A stretch of DNA of 64,000 nt from Heterostelium album PN500 (Eukaryota > Evosea > Eumycetozoa > Acytosteliales > Acytosteliaceae): positions 744,857 through 808,856 of the forward strand of contig NW_008805063.1 of NCBI RefSeq assembly GCF_000004825.1. The letters are read 5' to 3'. A program made the translations under genes and the position numbers. The notes below the pieces were generated by a model that had not been told where the DNA came from, made no database searches, and worked only from the letters and a program-made list of their open reading frames with translations. Positions 24,577 through 64,000 of this stretch are shown in pieces (positions within the stretch are counted from its first letter, which is position 1; the number at the start of each line of letters is the position of its first letter).

Positions 24577-27500
24577 ATGGTTAGATTATTTTCAAGTAAA
24601 TCAAAGAAACAAGATGATCCAAATGCAATAAATAATGCCTTTCAAGTGGTATTAGATGAAGTTGGTGTACCAGAAACTGAAAGAAAAGCGTTGATGGATT
24701 TGTAAATATCAAAAAACAATATAATTTGATGAACATCAATTTTCAGATTTATTTTTTAAAAAATAACATATATTAATTTATTTTATATACAATTGTATTT
24801 TATAGAGATGTAGAAAGAAAACAACAACTTATTACATCATTTAAGAATAAAGCAATTTCAAAAAAAGATTATGGATCTAGTCATAAGAAATCTACAAGTA
24901 AACCAGTCAGCCATTCGCCTCAGTATTTCGTGGAGGGTCTGAAGAGTAACCCATCAAAAGAGGTACTCACTTCACTACGTGTCAGACTTGGAAATCAACC
25001 TTTGAAATGGCTAAAGGAATTCATTGCAATTGATGGTGTTGCTTTATTAATTAAAGTTTTATCTACATTTGAAATCAAACCAAAGTAAATATAAAACAAC
25101 GAAACGAAATCAAATCGAATTGAATCAAATTAATTAACTAATCAATATTAATCTTAATTAATCTTACTAGTAAAACACCGGATGATATATTAATTATTGC
25201 ACAATGTTTACATTCTTTAAAGTTGATTATGAATAATAGAATCGGTTTGGATGCAGTCATAAAGATTCCCAACAGTATTGGATCGATTTCATTGCTGTTG
25301 GATACACCGCATGTAAAGTCAGTGTTGATGGTGTCAGAGTTGTTGGCCGGTTTGTGTGTTCTGCACCAGAAAGGACATGGACTTGTACTCTCGGGAATGG
25401 AACACTACAGGGAGGTGAAGCGTGAGAAGAAGCCATTCATCAACTTGATCAACGGTTTGTCACAGCCGGGCCCGTTGCAACCTGTGACTTTTGCGCTTAT
25501 CAACACTCTGATTAGCACGGCACAGAACGTCGACGATCGTATCAAGATTAGGAATCAATTCAAGCGAATTGGAATTCAAAACATTGTGCATCAGATCGCT
25601 ACAGAGCTACGAAAGAATGCCAATCCAGACTTGCAGACTCAACTCGATCTCTTTGAGCAAGAGGCGCGTTGGGACGAGCAAGAACAAGCCGAGAATATTC
25701 GTGGTGACCAATCCGATGACAATCCAAACTCGCTGTTGAGACAGTTGACCGAACGTACTACTGGCGGTCCTTTGTATCCGGCATTCATCTCCATCATGAA
25801 ACTGATGCTAAAGAATGCAACGGAAGATGATACCAGCGATGAAGAGTGTCTTTCGAATTTCATCTTTGTCGAGAAGATACTGAATAAGATGAATGGAGGT
25901 GATATTAGTAGCGATGATCTCAATGGATTCTTTGGTGATATGACTGGTGGCGGTGGTGTTGGCGGTACCATCGACATTGCCAATGTGTCGTCGGAGAAGG
26001 CCGTTCTCATTCAGAAGGAAATAGAGGATCTGAGAAAGGAGAAGAAGAAATCCGCTGAGAAATTGCATGAGAAGGACATACTACTGACAAAGTTGGCAAA
26101 GCGATTGAAGAGATTGACCGATGCCATTAAGAATGGAACCGCTGAAGAGGCACTCAAAGAAGAGGAGGAGTTGGAAAGCGATCTAGTCAAAGTGGCATCG
26201 ACTTCCACTGGCGTAGGAGCAAAGGCAGGCTTGCAGACAGTGAAATCCGGTCTCGATACCAATCAATTGATCAGGGCGAAAGCTCCTACTGGTGAAGTGA
26301 CCAACTTCCTCTCTGGACTATCCGGTGAAGATACCGACGCTTCTGCTGATCCCGCCGCTGCTTCCGGTGGTATTCCTTTGCCTCCAGGAGTGCCTCCACC
26401 TCCACCACCACCCGGACTGAAAGCGCCAGCCACACCTGAGCGATGCTCACGTCCTCCCAATGTCAAACTAAAGAGTTACCAATGGAACAAGTATCGTACA
26501 AGAAACATACCAAACACTTTCTGGACCAAGGTCAACTACTCCAAGTACGATGATTCCCTTCCCTACGAACAGATTGAAACACTGTTTGCTGCGGCAATCT
26601 TTGAGAAGAAGCAATCGGAGCAAAAGAAAGGTGATGTTACTGTGATCGATCCGAAACGTGCACAAAACATCGGAATTCTGCTCTCGCGTTTCAAGGGTAT
26701 CTCCTATGACACTCTCTACGATGCCATCTACAATCTTGACGACAAGGTACTAGATCTTGAAACGATCAATCAGATGATAAAGTATGTACCTACCAAGGAG
26801 GAGATAGATGCTATCAAAGCATTCAATTCCGCCAACGAAGCCAAACCCGTTGAAGAGCGTCTTAAACTCGGCAAAGCAGAGTTGTTTATCGATAAGATAT
26901 CGGATATTCCAAGATTGACACAACGTATACAGGCACTCCATTTCAAATTAAACTTCCCAGAGAAGTTGTACCATGCCAAGCCAGACATTAGAACATTCAA
27001 TGAAGCAATGATGGATTTACAAAATGAGAAATTATTTTCTGTTATGGAGGTATGTATATTTTATTATTGGTATATATATTTGATTACTAATATTATTATT
27101 AAAATAGTTAATTCTTTCAATTGGTAATTTCATAAACTATGGTACAAATAGAGGAAATGCTTCTGGTTTCAAGATTGACAGTATTAACAAGATGGCTGAT
27201 ACTAAGTCAAATGTCAAGGACAAATACAATTTGGTTCACTTTTTAGTTGAATTAATCATGTCTATCAATCCAAATATACTTAATTTCTCTGAAGAAATTC
27301 CAAAGGTCGCTGATGCCGCAACACGTAAGTTATTTTATTTATAATTTTTAAACAATTCAAAACATACTTAAACTTTTATACTCTATTAGTATCATTTTCA
27401 ACATCAACCTCTGAAATTAGATTGTTAAAGGCTGGCTTGATTAAATTGGAAAAGGAGTTATTTGAAGGAAAGAAAGAAGAGGAAGAAGAGGAATCAGAAA

Positions 27501-33911: not shown

Positions 33912-35534
33912 ATGAGGACATATCTATCAAAGAATAATGAATTATTAATAGTTATTTGGTATGTATGCCTAATAACAATCTATGAAAGTTAATTGGAAAT
34001 TATTATTATTAACAATGTTGTTTGTTGTTTATAAACTATGTTTAGTATTGATAATTCAGATTGGATGATCAATGGCGATTACAGTCCGAATCGATGGGCA
34101 GCACAACATCTGGCGGTGATACACCACGCCAACTACTTGCATAATCAACAGGTACCTTACACTATGTATGTCGTGTTGATGGCAGGTCTCAATGCGAGTA
34201 AGCGACCGTTGGTATACTCGATCATCTCCAACAACAAATACTCATCGCCTTTCAACGTCAAGGGAATCAAGCTCGCCGGTCAATCGGACATTGTCGGCTC
34301 ACTGCAACTCTGTCAACTGCTCTTTAAGAACAAAGAGTATCCACGTTACATCAAACGACTGATACTCTACAGTGGCAGTCCATTCCAAGGAAGTACAGAG
34401 CATCTCGCCGAACAAGCAAATCTACTGCACAACAACAACGTTTCACTGGAACTAATAACCTTTGGTGATAGTTCACATGACATCTTAGAGAATCATCTTT
34501 ATCAACATTCATTTACATCATCTACAACCAACAAAAGGTATCTATCATATCAAACATTCAATTCAATTCAATCCAATACTATATTATACTATACTATTAT
34601 ATATCATATATGATGTTAACTAACTATCCTATTTATCTATAGTTATTATAATAAGTTGATTCAAGGAAAGAATCTATTGGTACCTAATCTTACTAGTATG
34701 AGTTGGTTGGATTCCTATAAAACAAAAATGAACAATAACAACAACAACACCAATAATAATAATAATGACAATAACAACATTAACACTAGTAACAATAACA
34801 ATATTAACACTAATAACAACAATAATAATAATAATAGCAATAATATAGTGAGTAATTTAAGTGTGAATGAAGAGGATGTAGCATCAACAAGTGGAAATGG
34901 TAATGAACAATCTGTAAATAGTAGTCGCCCAAAATTACCAATAAAGAGAATTAAGATTTCAGCTTTTTTACCACAAAATCAACAACTTCGAGAACAGCAA
35001 CGAGAACAGCAGCTACAACAACAACGAGAACAGCAACAACAATCGTTTTCTTCACCTTCGTCACAGTTACAACCACGACAGCAACAACAACAACATTTCC
35101 AACAATATTATCAACATTATTATCAACAACAACAACAACAACAACAACAACATCATAATAATCATAATCATAATTATAATCAACATCAACATCAACAACA
35201 ACAGATTCAAAATAGTAAAAAATCATATCTACCAATGGTTGCAGGATCTACTGGAGGTTCTTGTAGAAAAGTAGTTGTTGATCTATCTAGACTATCACTT
35301 CCAAAGTCAAAGTATCATTTAGTGGTTAACTTTACACTGAGTAAACTTTTAGAAAATACAGAGGAAGAGATAGAAGCTGATGAGCAAAATAATAATGTAG
35401 ATGGAAGCTCTCAAAGTCAAATAGAAATCAATAATGTACAACCCGATGACACTACAACAACAACAACAACAACGACAACCACCACAACGACAACCACAAC
35501 TACAACCACCACTACGACAATGACAACAGCAACA

Positions 35535-35565
<31 letters not shown>

Positions 35566-35909
35566 CAACAACAAAAGATAACAACAATAATGTAGATAAT
35601 CAACAACAAACACAAAAACAACAAAAACAACATAAAAAGCATACTATTTATGGTGATCTATTGTTTTTATATAAGAATAGTGTATGTTTATAGAATTTAT
35701 TATTGTTAGATTATATATATTCTAATTATTATTTTGTATCAATAGAGAATATTGTTAGAATTCCCAGCAGGTAAATGTTTATATCAAAACGGTATTGTAT
35801 TACCTTTGCCAGCAAGAGGTCAACTATCACTGGTGAAAATTGGTATTACAAACTATCAAATCATTTGGAGAAATACAACAACAATGAAAGTTGAAAATGT
35901 AATTATAAT

Positions 35910-35961
<52 letters not shown>

Positions 35962-37328
35962 TATTGAATATGTTAACTAATTTGTTATATTTGTTTTGTT
36001 TTATAAATATCATTTAGACTATATTCTTTAATTTTAGAGAGGTTAAATATTTAAAAGTACCATCGACAGTCACACAGGATAGAATATTCTATTTCAAGTT
36101 TCCGTTGTTGCAGCATCAGCACCAAGCGAAACCAAGCTTTTTCATATGGCCGCAGTACGACGATATTTTTAGAGATGAGCTGAATCTCTTGCGTATCAAC
36201 GAGATTGTTAATTCACAGAGATCGGAGCGCACCCAAGAAAAGATATCGTCGCTCGTCAAGATTATCTCTCAGAATATGTCGTCGTCGCCTCTGACACTGC
36301 CCCTACTGCAGCACATCCAACAACACCAAAAGATGATCAATAGCACCAGCACACCTCCACCAATGGCCAAGTTATTCTCCATTAAGACATCACAACTAGT
36401 AAATTCGAAGCTTGACACAAAGACACCACTTCCTGAAATCAAACTTAATCATTCCGCACTTCAACATAATAGAGAGATTAACTTTGTAAATAATAACAAT
36501 AATAATAATAATAATAATAACAGTAACAATAATAGTATATCAATCAATAATAATAATATTAATAACATTGTAAATAGTAATAATAATAATAACGATAAAA
36601 CATTTAAATCAGTTAGTGAAGATGGTTTGACATGGACGTTGAATCCACTACACGAGTCAAAGAAGACAACAGCGGAAATCAACAAGTTAGATGTGGAAAC
36701 TGAAGGTGATGATGTTTTTGTAGATGATGATGAGGTTGTTCATCCAGTTTCATCGGTGTCCTCTTCCTCTTCATCAACGATCGATCAAATACTTAAAGAA
36801 GAAGAGGATGATGGTAATGAAGAGGTGTTGAATAGTGACATTGTAATGGCTGACGACGATGATGATGAGGAAGAAACAACATTGGTTACAAATTCAACAA
36901 TTGTTGTCGACCAAAATGTTGATGTCGATGTCGAAGTTGTTAGTGGAAGCACCGGTGATAGCATTATAGCTGGTAGCAGTGAGGTTGGTGCTGACAATGA
37001 TAGCGGCGCTGATGTTCCTGTTTCTTTGTTTTTGGAAACCACGAAACTAAGTCTGTTCAAGCCGAATCCGCTAACGAGCATACCGATTCCCGATCCACTG
37101 ACAAGCATGCCAACAACAGCAATGCCGGCAAACAGCATAACAACAACAACTACCACTACGATAGTTCCAAGTCAAGAGATACAAAATGCCTATGACAACA
37201 CAACCAAAGCGCCTGCCACAACCGCCCAAGCAGTGGCAAATGCCACTTCCACCACCACAACAGCAACCGCAGTCAACACACCCTCCACAATAGACAAAGA
37301 GATCGATCCTGATATAACCAATCTGTAA
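33912..37328 (+). CDS. Rpn10-type VWA and Rpn13-type Pru domain fusion protein
   Basis: Five exons, 33912-33958, 34046-34537, 34643-35681, 35746-35898 and 36018-37328, all in frame, give 1013 residues. The short first exon supplies the first VWA strand: NNELLIVICIDNSDWMINGDY then SPNRWAAQ matches the proteasome subunit Rpn10 (VLVIDNSEYMRNGD...P.R...AQ). VWA spans about 5-190. Residues about 210-470 are Asn, Gln, Thr and Ala repeats. Residues about 525-640 match the Rpn13/ADRM1 Pru domain: LLEFPAGKC (LVEFRAGKM), ARGQLSLVKI, a Trp (IIW for HFCW), NFREVKYLKVP, DRIFYFKF and FFIW...RINEIVN. No UIM (the Rpn10 ubiquitin motif) and no clear DEUBAD follow; the rest is acidic and Thr-rich. Both parts belong to ubiquitin receptors of the 26S lid/base, so a proteasome-associated role is inferred. 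A standard separate psmD4 and adrm1 presumably exist elsewhere. Confidence 0.88.
35908..35962. repeat. (AAT)n microsatellite in intron 4 of the VWA-Pru gene
   Basis: About 17 AAT units just after the 5' splice site. Confidence 0.9.
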
Positions 37329-57334: not shown

Positions 57335-59409
57335 TTAAGATTGGTTTTGACTTTGGTAACTGTGAGAGTTGCTTATGATTCTACCAGAGTACGAGTTGTA
57401 ATAGTCTTCATTATCGTCGTTATCTAAGATTTCGTTGATTGAATGTGAATGTTGGTTGTTGTAGTTGTTTGAATCATAGCTGTGTCTATCTCTCTTTTTG
57501 TTATCTTTAGACTTCTCATCTTCTTCCTGGCTGCTTCCACTGGAATGATTTGAATTCTTTAAAAGTATTTCCATAATCTCCTTGTCTTCTCCTTCTCTCT
57601 GCATGATCTCTAGAGCCAACTTTACAGATGAGCCCTTACCGATTAAATATTTTACAAAATTAAACTTTCCTGTCTTGGCAGCCAAATATAGTGGTGTGTG
57701 TCCTTGGTCATCCAAGACATCGATTTTTCCTTGATAATTATCAAAAATTAGTTGTCCCATCATGACAGTTCCATACTGTACAGAAAGATGTAGGGCGTTT
57801 TGTTTATTACAAGTCTATATATATAAAAATATTATGTTAATATAAAATGTTGGTTTTTTTTTTGTTGTTATTATCATATCCTTTAACTTACACTTAAATC
57901 TAAATTGGATCTATTTTTAATTAATATTTTTACAGTTTCAATTCTGCCTTCTCTGATGGCATAATGAATTGGAGAGAATCCTTCATTGTCTTGAATGTTG
58001 GGGTTGGTTCCTTTTTCCAAAAGATAAGAGACAATCAAATCGTTACCCATGAGTGAGGCGGTATGTAATGGAGTGTGACCTTCGCGATCAAGAGATTCTA
58101 AATCGGCACCATACTTGACTAAAAGTTTGACAATACCAATGTGTCCCATGATTGAGGCATGATGAAGTGGTGTGTAGTTATTTACATCGAGTACAGTGGG
58201 TTTCGCTTCGTTCTCCAAAAGCAATTGGCAAATACGTTCAGAGCCCTTAAGAGAAGCGATATGTAGAGGTGTTTCACCAGTGGTCTGGTGACGTGTGGAA
58301 ACTTCGGCATGATTTTCGAGGAGACATCGCACAATGTTGGTATGTCCACTCTTGGCAGCTGCGTACAAAGGAGAAACACCCTCATCGTTAACTAGGTTAG
58401 GATCGGCACCATATTGGAGTAAGTACTCCACATTGTGAATATTTCCCAAAAGGGATGCGGCAAGTATCGGGGTGTTTCCCTGGTTATCACGAATGTTTGG
58501 ATCGGCACCACTTTCAATAAGTCTTCGAACTTGGAACTCGTATCCAAGAACAGCGGCTGTAAACAAAAGTGAGAGACCGCGACTGTCTCTAGTGTTGACA
58601 TCGATAGAGTTTGGATCCTCTGGATTGTAGCGAAGGAGGCTTTCGGCATTTCCTGGGTGTAGCAAAATACGATTCCATATTGATGCTACCGATGGGGATT
58701 TGTCACCTGGCGAACTTGATCCCGATTGCTTATCATTTATATTTGAATATACATCACCCTTTATCGAGGAAAGACCAGTGAGTGAATCGTAGAGATGCTC
58801 CGATGATCCGGTCAAAGGTGGTCTAAACTCCATGTTTCTGGCTTTGGCACGTCTATTTTGGAACCATATTTGAACAGAACGCGGTGTCATTCCGAGCTCA
58901 ATGGCCAATTGATTTCTCAAGTTTAGACTAGGATGTTGATGTGCAAGGAATATTCTCTCTAAAATCTTTAGTTGATCCGGAGATGTTCTCTTTCTCTTCT
59001 TTTTCAATGGATCATCCTCAAGATCCAATAAGTTGCTGGTTGAAAGTGAAAGTGATGGTGATAGACTCTGTGAAATCGATTGTGGTGGTGGTGATTTATG
59101 CTTCTGTTGGTAATAATCGTTGCCAGACGATGAACCATACAAACTGAAGCCAGGTGCTTGTTGCTTTATATTTTGGTTGTATTGTGATGGGTATGGTGCC
59201 GATGAGAATTGATAAGATCGATCGGGAGGCGGTGCTCTGCCATCGATATAATGATATTGTGGAGGTGCTTGTTGGTATTGATGTGGAGTTGGATGATGAT
59301 GTGCTGCTGCTGCTGCTGGTGGTGCTGCTGCTGATGGATAACCATAGATATTGGTGGGCATGGAGTAGTGTCCACCTACTGGTGGATTCATTGCTACTCT
59401 ATGTGACAT
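57335..59409 (-). CDS. warA: Wariai-type homeobox and ankyrin-repeat protein
   Basis: Developmental regulator; D. discoideum Wariai controls the size of the prestalk O zone. Exons 59409-57892 and 57814-57335 give 665 residues. N-terminus: Pro, Ala, Gln and His-rich disordered segment. Homeodomain about 136-192: KKKRKRTSPDQLKILERIFLA, a LNLRNQLAIELGMTPRSV helix 2 turn, and the recognition helix WFQNRRAKAR. From about 245 a set of about ten ankyrin repeats (GNTPILAASLLGNIHNVEYLL, then GADPNLVNDEG, ETPLHIASLKGSERICQLLL, TPLHHASIMGHIGIVKLLVK and so on), one split by the intron. A charged, Asn/Ser-rich tail ends the protein. The combination of homeobox and ankyrin repeats is diagnostic. It is somewhat shorter than I recall for D. 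discoideum. Transcribed away from a 3.1-kb upstream region. Confidence 0.92.
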
Positions 59410-62523: not shown

Positions 62524-64000
62524 TTAGAAATTCTCTTTGTGGAATTTAAATTTCGTTCCTTTTAAGCTTGTAAAGTGTTTACATTTTCCATAGAGTTCTT
62601 TGGATAGTGCTGGCGGTCCACAACAAAACAATCCTATTGCTAAAGTTAGTTGGTTATCGTGAAAATTAATGAGGTTTGTTAGTTAGATGTTTTGTTTTGT
62701 TTCGTTTCAATTAAATTCATTTCATATTACATACTTTCACCTGGGTATTTATTTGAATAGTAATCGAATATCGCGTCCCAATTCGGACGTCCCCAATGTG
62801 TTTTGAATGGTAGGTTGGTGGTTGGATCCAATCCCTGATGTTTGAACATCTTTTCCAATCCATTCCAGAGCATAAAGGTACGTGCATCGTTCTTTGGAAT
62901 ACACTGGGTGGTGAATGTGTGCACCGATATTTTCGGTGTATCGTTTCCGGTTCTCGCGATTTCCATCAGCAACTCTTCGAACCACTGGAAGCAATTGGGA
63001 TCTCTGTTTAGCCAGAAGAAGTGTACTTTCTCGAGATTGCCAATGTCCATCGCCTTTTCGTTTGACGCACCGTAGTTGCCAGAGGCACGGTTCTTCAGAG
63101 AATCCTTTTTCAGCTTGATATCCTGCAAAAGCGATGCCATCGGGGCAACACCAATGCCAGCGCCAACGAGAATGATCTGCTTCTCTTTGAGTGCGTATTG
63201 CGAAGAAGAGCCAAAAGGTCCATCGATGTTGATCTCAATGTCTTTGGCACCGACTTCCAAGTCGAGAGCATCGTTTGTTTGTTTCCTCGAGAGATAGTCA
63301 AACAGCGATTTAGTCCAACCGCCAGTCACTCGAATGTGCACACTAATATGATCTTGGAGTGGCGACGATGTCATTGTGAACGGGTGCCACTGAAGTTTCG
63401 AGATCTGCGGTACGTTGACCAACAGGTATTGTCCAGGTTTGTAGTTGAACGAGCTAGGTCTACTGAAAGTGAGATTGATCACCTTGGAATTCTTTAGACT
63501 GAAGTTGACTATCGATACTCTGTGTGTTTTTCGGCATAGACGGAATCCTCTGTCCAACATATAGAGTGCAGCAGGCCCGATGAACCACTTCCAAAACGAT
63601 GGCGGTGAGATCCAACCCTGTGATCCGTGGACAATCAACAAAATATAAAACAAAATGAAAATGTGATGTGTGTAGTAGAACCCCTCAAAGAATCTCTTTC
63701 TGAAACTCTTGAACGAACAAGCTAGCATAACGATGAGTATTGCCAGCATGAGAAATCCAGTGATTCCAGGAACACTGAGAAATATCATTGCCCAAACAGT
63801 AGGTCTGGCTGTGAAATGTGGAAACATACAACTAAAGAATACATAGTCTGGTTTGGTCGATGCAATTCCCATACCAAAGAACCAGCCGACACTTGATATC
63901 GATCGATCGATCAATCAATCAAAGTTAGTTAGTTAAATGTTTTGTTGGTTTATGTTTGCAGTTTTTCATATATACATACGTGTGAACTAATGATGCTAAA
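62524..64000 (-). CDS. NADPH oxidase (Nox) heavy chain, 3' part
   Basis: Superoxide-generating membrane flavocytochrome; incomplete, the 5' part lies beyond the window. Exons seen: up to 63980 (partial; ends VHT), 63891-62735 and 62639-62524. Membrane part: [12 protein letters not shown], a long hydrophobic helix [13 protein letters not shown] and [21 protein letters not shown] with the paired heme His of helix 5. The cytosolic part has the FAD motif [28 protein letters not shown] (NADPH pyrophosphate), FFWLNRD and the family C-terminus FHKENF, in full. [13 protein letters not shown] precedes it. Dictyostelids have Nox genes with and without EF-hands; which one this is cannot be decided from this fragment. 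Stop at 62524-62526 (TAA). Confidence 0.93.

What the first reader, a model, noticed from the sequence alone, without database searches (positions are those of the whole stretch)
33912..37328. Fusion of two proteasomal ubiquitin-receptor modules: Rpn10-type VWA plus Rpn13-type Pru
In one spliced gene, an N-terminal VWA reading IDNSDWMINGDY matches Rpn10, and residues about 525-640 match the Pru domain of Rpn13 block by block (LLEFPAGKC, ARGQLSL, KYLKVP, DRIFYFKF, FFIW, RINEIVN). Normally these are separate subunits. No UIM and no clear DEUBAD are present, and the acidic loop of the Pru domain (human VEDD) reads VENT. I infer a bipartite adaptor that could contact the lid through VWA and Rpn2 through Pru, or a decoy or alternative receptor used in a particular stage. 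The Asn/Gln-rich linker could be long enough to reach both sites.
Basis: partly seen in the sequence, partly recalled or inferred. Interest (0 to 1): 0.85.

Follow-up and report, generated by a model that had tools for sequence, protein, structure and literature searches.

The report
Slime-mould Rpn10-VWA plus Rpn13-Pru fusion protein
A social amoeba carries one gene that joins the anchoring parts of two separate proteasome receptors, Rpn10 and Rpn13, and a second social amoeba has the same joined protein, so it looks like a real, retained protein whose role, probably linked to the proteasome, is untested.

Summary
Five exons (33912-37328, +) give one 1013-residue frame with an Rpn10-type VWA (best PDB match Rpn10, E 7.6e-17) and an Rpn13-type Pru (PF04683 E 5.7e-9 on the piece; 8 of 8 PDB matches ADRM1). 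Tieghemostelium lacteum has the same VWA-linker-Pru order in one 908-residue protein, continuous across introns 1, 3 and 4, with a shared C-terminal motif (14 of 19 identical). The same genome also has an Rpn10 with UIMs and an Rpn13 with Pru+DEUBAD, so this is an additional paralogue. Intron 1 shares codon and phase with that Rpn10 gene in 24 of 24 alignments, intron 2 in 18 of 24: the VWA half looks like an Rpn10 gene copy. UIM and DEUBAD are absent. Five of 14 human Rpn2-contact residues and one of six ubiquitin-contact residues are kept. Best reading: an accessory proteasome adaptor that probably does not bind ubiquitin. Docking is inferred only. Loss of 29 of 52 Rpn10-invariant VWA positions, and Arabidopsis data on the residue matching F76, leave an off-proteasome role open.

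The parts
33912..33958 (+). Exon 1 (MRTYLSKNNELLIVI + first two bases of the Cys codon); start of the VWA
   Evidence: donor GTATGT; same intron codon and phase as the Rpn10 gene of this genome
34046..34537 (+). Exon 2: most of the Rpn10-type VWA (IDNSDWMINGDY ... TTNK)
   Evidence: genome-wide VWA_2 hit at C2:778891-779229 = window 34035-34373
34643..35681 (+). Exon 3: end of VWA (about to 34703), then Asn/Gln/Thr-rich linker, ending in the pre-Pru block FLYKNS (residues 521-526)
   Evidence: FLYK conserved in T. lacteum
35746..35898 (+). Exon 4: first half of Pru (RILLEFPAGKC ... MKVEN)
36018..37328 (+). Exon 5: second half of Pru (TIFFNFREVKYLKVP ... RINEIVN, to about 36221), post-Pru block, low-complexity tail, stop
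33948..34703 (+). VWA domain, residues about 13-200 (introns included in the span)
35746..36221 (+). Pru domain, residues about 527-645 (one intron included)
36627..36650 (+). Small block LTWTLNPL, residues 781-788 (T. lacteum LNWTYSPL)
37044..37100 (+). Conserved proline-rich C-terminal motif KLSLFKPNPLTSIPIPDPL, residues 920-938 (T. lacteum KISLFQPNPMSSIPIPVPL, from residue 813)
   Evidence: 14 of 19 identical

Best explanation
It is a paralogue present in at least two dictyostelids. A copy of an Rpn10 gene kept its VWA and at least the first of that part's introns, has no UIM-bearing tail, and is joined through a long low-complexity linker to a Pru domain without DEUBAD (anatomy shown; the order of events is inferred). 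Most likely mechanism, inferred: it works as an accessory proteasome adaptor. The Pru holds the C-terminal tail of Rpn2 through a groove that keeps V38, P40, V85, W108 and Q110. The VWA docks on, or competes for, the Rpn10 place beside the lid. The low-complexity regions and the conserved C-terminal SLF-PNP--SIPIP motif recruit a partner. It would add a client or regulator to some proteasomes without binding ubiquitin itself.
For: Both domains were found independently. Pfam. PDB sequence search: 9 of 10 VWA matches are named Rpn10/PSMD4/S5a and the tenth, 8amz_W ('VWFA domain-containing protein'), aligns as a plant-like Rpn10; 8 of 8 Pru matches are ADRM1. The same architecture exists in T. 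lacteum DLAC_08409: VWA 31% identical (58 of 190), Pru 43% (49 of 113), C-terminal motif 14 of 19. Intron 1 shares codon and phase with this genome's Rpn10 in 24 of 24 alignments, intron 2 in 18 of 24. A separate Rpn13 with DEUBAD and Rpn10 with two UIM stretches (E 8.3e-7) are present, and Rpn2 ends in PQPFEFTD. Of 14 human Rpn2-contact residues taken from PMC5494190 (passages), 5 are identical in the fusion, 6 in T. lacteum and 7 in this genome's canonical Rpn13. D11, whose alanine mutant was not found in 26S proteasomes in Arabidopsis (PMC11546751, passages), is kept.
Against: The VWA keeps only 23 of 52 positions invariant in four canonical Rpn10s; H99, R100, Q101, K103 and N44-P45-E46 are lost in both species. 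In the Pru groove M31 is C and L33 is Y in both, and T36, T37, T39 and P112 are changed. In Arabidopsis, RPN13 F67 and F88 (human F76 and F98) are needed for RPN2 as well as ubiquitin binding, while M22A (human M31) has no effect (PMC11546751, passages): F76 is N/D in the fusions, though it is also A in this genome's canonical Rpn13. Ubiquitin-face identity to human is 1 of 6 (fusion), 2 of 6 (T. lacteum) and 2 of 6 (own canonical), so loss of ubiquitin binding is only suggested. Intron 2 agrees in only 6 of the 12 alignments that hold no recalled sequences.
Confidence: 0.42

Rival explanations
1. The protein has left the proteasome: VWA and Pru now serve as protein-binding modules of another complex, with the C-terminal motif as the conserved partner site.
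For: 29 of 52 canonical VWA invariants lost in each species, 24 of them in both; M31C and L33Y shared by both, and F76 polar in both, the matching residue being needed for RPN2 binding in Arabidopsis; a conserved C-terminal motif whose SIPIP core is not in the own canonical Rpn13.
Against: Two modules whose known homologues both dock on the same particle are kept together; V38, P40, V85, W108 and Q110 are kept in both.
Confidence: 0.37
2. A true ubiquitin receptor: the Pru still binds ubiquitin and the fusion is an alternative receptor of the proteasome.
For: F98 kept; D79 is E, as in Arabidopsis RPN13 (E70), which takes part in ubiquitin binding (PMC11546751, passages); T. lacteum keeps S55; the own canonical Rpn13 is itself atypical on this face.
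Against: L56 is N in both, F76 is N or D, D78 is R or K; no UIM found.
Confidence: 0.1
3. Bivalent occupant: one molecule fills the Rpn10 and Rpn13 places at once and makes a receptor-swapped proteasome at some life stage.
For: Long linkers (314 residues here, 225 in T. lacteum, as cut); both docking modules are present; the canonical Rpn10 copy shows a frame break in this assembly.
Against: Same VWA and Pru losses; no stage data; canonical subunits present.
Confidence: 0.08
4. Artefact: two neighbouring genes joined by a wrong gene model, or a decaying relic.
For: No RNA evidence here; the gene's own product was not returned among public proteins of about 557-1772 residues.
Against: T. lacteum carries both domains in one listed protein; homology is ungapped across introns 1, 3 and 4; exon 3 holds both the VWA end and the pre-Pru block in one frame.
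Confidence: 0.03

Closest known systems
Rpn10 / PSMD4 / S5a
   Same: N-terminal VWA with the DNS...NGD signature; shared intron 1 (and probably intron 2) with the Rpn10 gene of the same genome
   Different: No UIM found; 29 of 52 canonical invariant VWA positions changed; long low-complexity linker and a Pru instead of the UIM tail
Rpn13 / ADRM1
   Same: Pru domain with groove residues V38, P40, V85, W108, Q110; lack of DEUBAD is shared with the short yeast Rpn13 (PMC11546751, passage)
   Different: Pru is internal, not N-terminal; no DEUBAD, unlike the Rpn13 of the same genome; L56 and F76 replaced by polar residues; intron places in the Pru differ from the own Rpn13 gene (by eye)
Tieghemostelium lacteum DLAC_08409 (P0003)
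   Same: Same order VWA-linker-Pru-tail, same C-terminal motif; best read as the orthologue
   Different: 908 residues; VWA_2 just below Pfam's cut-off (25.1 against 27 bits); shorter linker; database name only 'hypothetical protein' / 'Pru domain-containing protein'
Reduced, VWA-containing proteasomal receptor of Giardia (PMC4352536, search listing only)
   Same: VWA-based Rpn10 relative with reduced anatomy
   Different: No Pru is mentioned in the listing; a reduced subunit, not an additional fusion

Membership tests
Rpn10 (PSMD4) | N-terminal Rpn10-type VWA with DxS | tested here: met
   VWA_2 over cut-off, PDB matches Rpn10, D11-N12-S13 and N18-G19-D20 kept
Rpn10 (PSMD4) | one or more C-terminal UIMs | tested here: not met
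   no PF02809 listed at E<=1; no UIM-like match in either fusion protein, present in the Salix control; own canonical Rpn10 scores E 8.3e-7
Rpn10 (PSMD4) | incorporation beside the proteasome lid | not testable with these tools
   needs purification; residue retention is 23 of 52
Rpn13 (ADRM1) | Pru domain | tested here: met
   PF04683 E 5.7e-9 on residues 525-663, not listed in the whole-protein scan; T. lacteum E 7e-7 in the whole protein
Rpn13 (ADRM1) | C-terminal DEUBAD (usual, but absent from yeast Rpn13, so not strictly defining) | tested here: not met
   no RPN13_C listed at E<=1, while the canonical Rpn13 of the same genome scores E 2.6e-21; not listed for T. lacteum at E<=10
Rpn13 (ADRM1) | Rpn2-tail groove residues | tested here: inconclusive
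   5 of 14 identical to human (6 of 14 T. lacteum, 7 of 14 own canonical); F76, needed in Arabidopsis, changed
Rpn13 (ADRM1) | ubiquitin-face residues S55 L56 I75 F76 D79 F98 | tested here: inconclusive
   1 of 6 identical (T. lacteum 2 of 6, own canonical 2 of 6)

The most novel reading that the evidence does not exclude
A previously undescribed dictyostelid proteasome-subunit paralogue that clamps both receptor sites (Rpn10 place through VWA, Rpn2 tail through Pru) from one polypeptide, displacing the ubiquitin receptors and recruiting a client through its conserved SLF-PNP--SIPIP tail, so that a subset of proteasomes becomes ubiquitin-blind.
Probability: 0.12. Interest if true: 0.88.

Novelty: new variant of a known kind. 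Interest (0 to 1): 0.55.

Why it matters
Rpn10 and Rpn13 are treated as separate subunits in the evolutionary survey of which I saw passages (PMC4453063). A single protein that keeps both docking modules but has no detected UIM or DEUBAD, present in two amoebae, is a natural test of what these modules do besides catching ubiquitin. This ties in with Arabidopsis work (PMC11546751, abstract and passages) in which the ubiquitin-binding part of RPN10 was dispensable and the RPN13-RPN2 contact mattered in vivo. Dictyostelids can be grown in the laboratory (recall), so purification and gene removal are feasible.

Tried and rejected
Two-gene artefact: rejected because of the T. lacteum single protein and the exon 3 linkage. 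TFIIH-type VWA: this genome's p44-like VWA is a different locus (L009, named by eye and recall), and the PDB matches of the fusion VWA are Rpn10. An intramolecular copy of the Rpn2 tail in the C-terminal motif was considered; the motif lacks the P-F-E-[YF] core, so it is not claimed. The motif has no PDB match at E<=10. A DNA pattern for PNPxxSIPIP finds one further place in the genome (C14:588019, not read further). The whole-protein Pfam scan also listed New_glue (E 0.001, below its cut-off) over the Thr-rich linker; taken as low complexity. Distribution: with the Pru, one search returned only T. lacteum (1 protein at E<=10 among 280 candidates), which used the T. lacteum Pru, returned only the query itself (28 candidates). 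With the VWA, one search returned two Salix gene models carrying an Rpn10 VWA (289 candidates) and missed T. lacteum. The tool needs exact 5-residue words and a length window, so absence from D. discoideum or others is NOT shown. The sigma-70/terminator scan is irrelevant to an amoeba. Literature: none of the titles or abstract starts listed (20 of 38 papers listed; 10 of 30; 12 of 19; 12 of 422; 10 of 10) describes a VWA-Pru fusion; (the T. lacteum gene name) found no paper. Only open-licence PMC papers were searched. I also set the artefact rival at 0.03 instead of 0.02, a small correction because single transcription is untested.

Full report
Gene model. Five exons at 33912-33958, 34046-34537, 34643-35681, 35746-35898 and 36018-37328 (+) join through four GT-AG introns into an uninterrupted 1013-residue protein.

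Domains. Residues 13-125 match VWA_2 (PF13519) at E 3.9e-8, above the curated cut-off. In the PDB sequence library residues 1-209 have ten matches at E<=1: nine are named Rpn10, PSMD4 or S5a, and the tenth (8amz_W, named 'VWFA domain-containing protein') reads as a plant-like Rpn10; best E 7.6e-17. Residues 525-663 scanned alone match PF04683 (Rpn13 Pru) at E 5.7e-9, above cut-off; the scan of the whole protein did not list it. All eight PDB matches of that piece at E<=10 are ADRM1, best E 4.4e-4. No UIM and no DEUBAD model is listed at E<=1, and no UIM-like expression is found.

Not chance, and very unlikely a mis-joined model. A search with the Pru region returned one protein, T. lacteum DLAC_08409 (P0003, 908 residues, E 6.2e-24). 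It has the same VWA at its N-terminus (31%, 58 of 190 columns, E 5e-26 as a single comparison; VWA_2 at 25.1 bits, just under the cut-off of 27). The two Pru domains are 43% identical (49 of 113 columns), against 20-26% of either to human or to the own canonical Rpn13. Homology runs without a gap across introns 1, 3 and 4; around intron 2 it is weak. Exon 3 carries the VWA end and the conserved pre-Pru block FLYK in one frame. Outside the domains both share K[LI]SLF[KQ]PNP[LM][TS]SIPIP[DV]PL (14 of 19 identical) and L-WT--PL. The best local alignment of the two tails scores 122, against at most 101 in 300 block shuffles.

Context in the genome. The assembly that holds the window (32.9 Mb, 39 contigs) also has a separate Pru+DEUBAD Rpn13 (C24:1067155) and a separate Rpn10 (C3:1953802-1954294) whose later exons carry two UIM stretches (E 8.3e-7). 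Its Rpn2 ends in PQPFEFTD, like the human Rpn13 dock (human letters from recall). So the fusion is additional. One caution: the only canonical Rpn10 copy found shows a frame break in its third exon in this assembly, which may be a sequencing error. If so, the two carriers belong to two orders, Acytosteliales and Dictyosteliales, and the fusion would date to the ancestor of both. That is inference.

Origin. Intron 1 splits the Cys codon of ICIDNS (TG|T), exactly as in the own Rpn10 gene (ICVDNS, TG|T); the columns agree in 24 of 24 alignments. The VWA half is therefore most simply a copy of an Rpn10 gene; intron 1 is the firm part of that argument. The two introns in the fusion Pru are not at the places seen in the own Rpn13 gene (by eye).

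What the residues say. Of six ubiquitin-contact residues (S55, L56, I75, F76, D79, F98; PMC11546751, passages) the fusion keeps one, T. lacteum two and the own canonical Rpn13 two. L56 is N in both fusions but L in the canonical one; F76 is N/D (A in the canonical one). Of 14 Rpn2-contact residues (PMC5494190, passages) the fusion keeps five (V38, P40, V85, W108, Q110), T. lacteum six and the canonical one seven. Against docking: in Arabidopsis RPN13 the residues matching F76 and F98 are needed for RPN2 binding and the one matching M31 is not (PMC11546751, passages), so by that map the fusions keep one of two. Of 52 VWA positions invariant in four canonical Rpn10s (own, Salix, human, yeast; human and yeast from memory), each fusion keeps 23, 18 of them in both, including D11-N12-S13. 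This fits a kept VWA fold and a partly kept peptide groove, and weakly disfavours ubiquitin binding. It does not prove docking.

Mechanism. Shown: architecture, second carrier, separate canonical genes, no detected UIM or DEUBAD. Inferred: Pru-Rpn2 contact, VWA-lid contact, partner recruitment through the C-terminal motif. I give the adaptor reading 0.42 and an off-proteasome role 0.37.

Limits. Protein searches need exact 5-residue words and similar lengths, so other dictyostelid carriers may have been missed. The gene's own product was not returned in the length range of about 557-1772, so a public model, if any, may be split or absent (inference).

Noticed in passing
L006 (G000:C3, minus strand), third exon of the canonical Rpn10: The only canonical Rpn10 copy found reads in two different frames within its third exon; assembly error or real change is not known.
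   Followed up: partly
L001 (G000:C24:1065655-1068867): The canonical Rpn13 gene lies beside a small, oppositely oriented gene whose exons look ubiquitin-like (read by eye; no profile search made).
   Followed up: no
window 57883-59409 (-): Homeodomain followed by many ankyrin repeats in one open frame, resembling the Wariai protein of Dictyostelium (name from recall).
   Followed up: no
window 62727-63872 (-): NADPH-oxidase/ferric-reductase type protein with FAD_binding_8, NAD_binding_6 and part of Ferric_reduct.
   Followed up: no
window 25229-27127 (+): Formin with FH3 and part of FH2; its GBD match is below the cut-off.
   Followed up: no
window 37044-37100: Proline-rich motif KLSLFKPNPLTSIPIPDPL conserved to T. 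lacteum inside an otherwise poorly conserved tail; no PDB match.
   Followed up: partly
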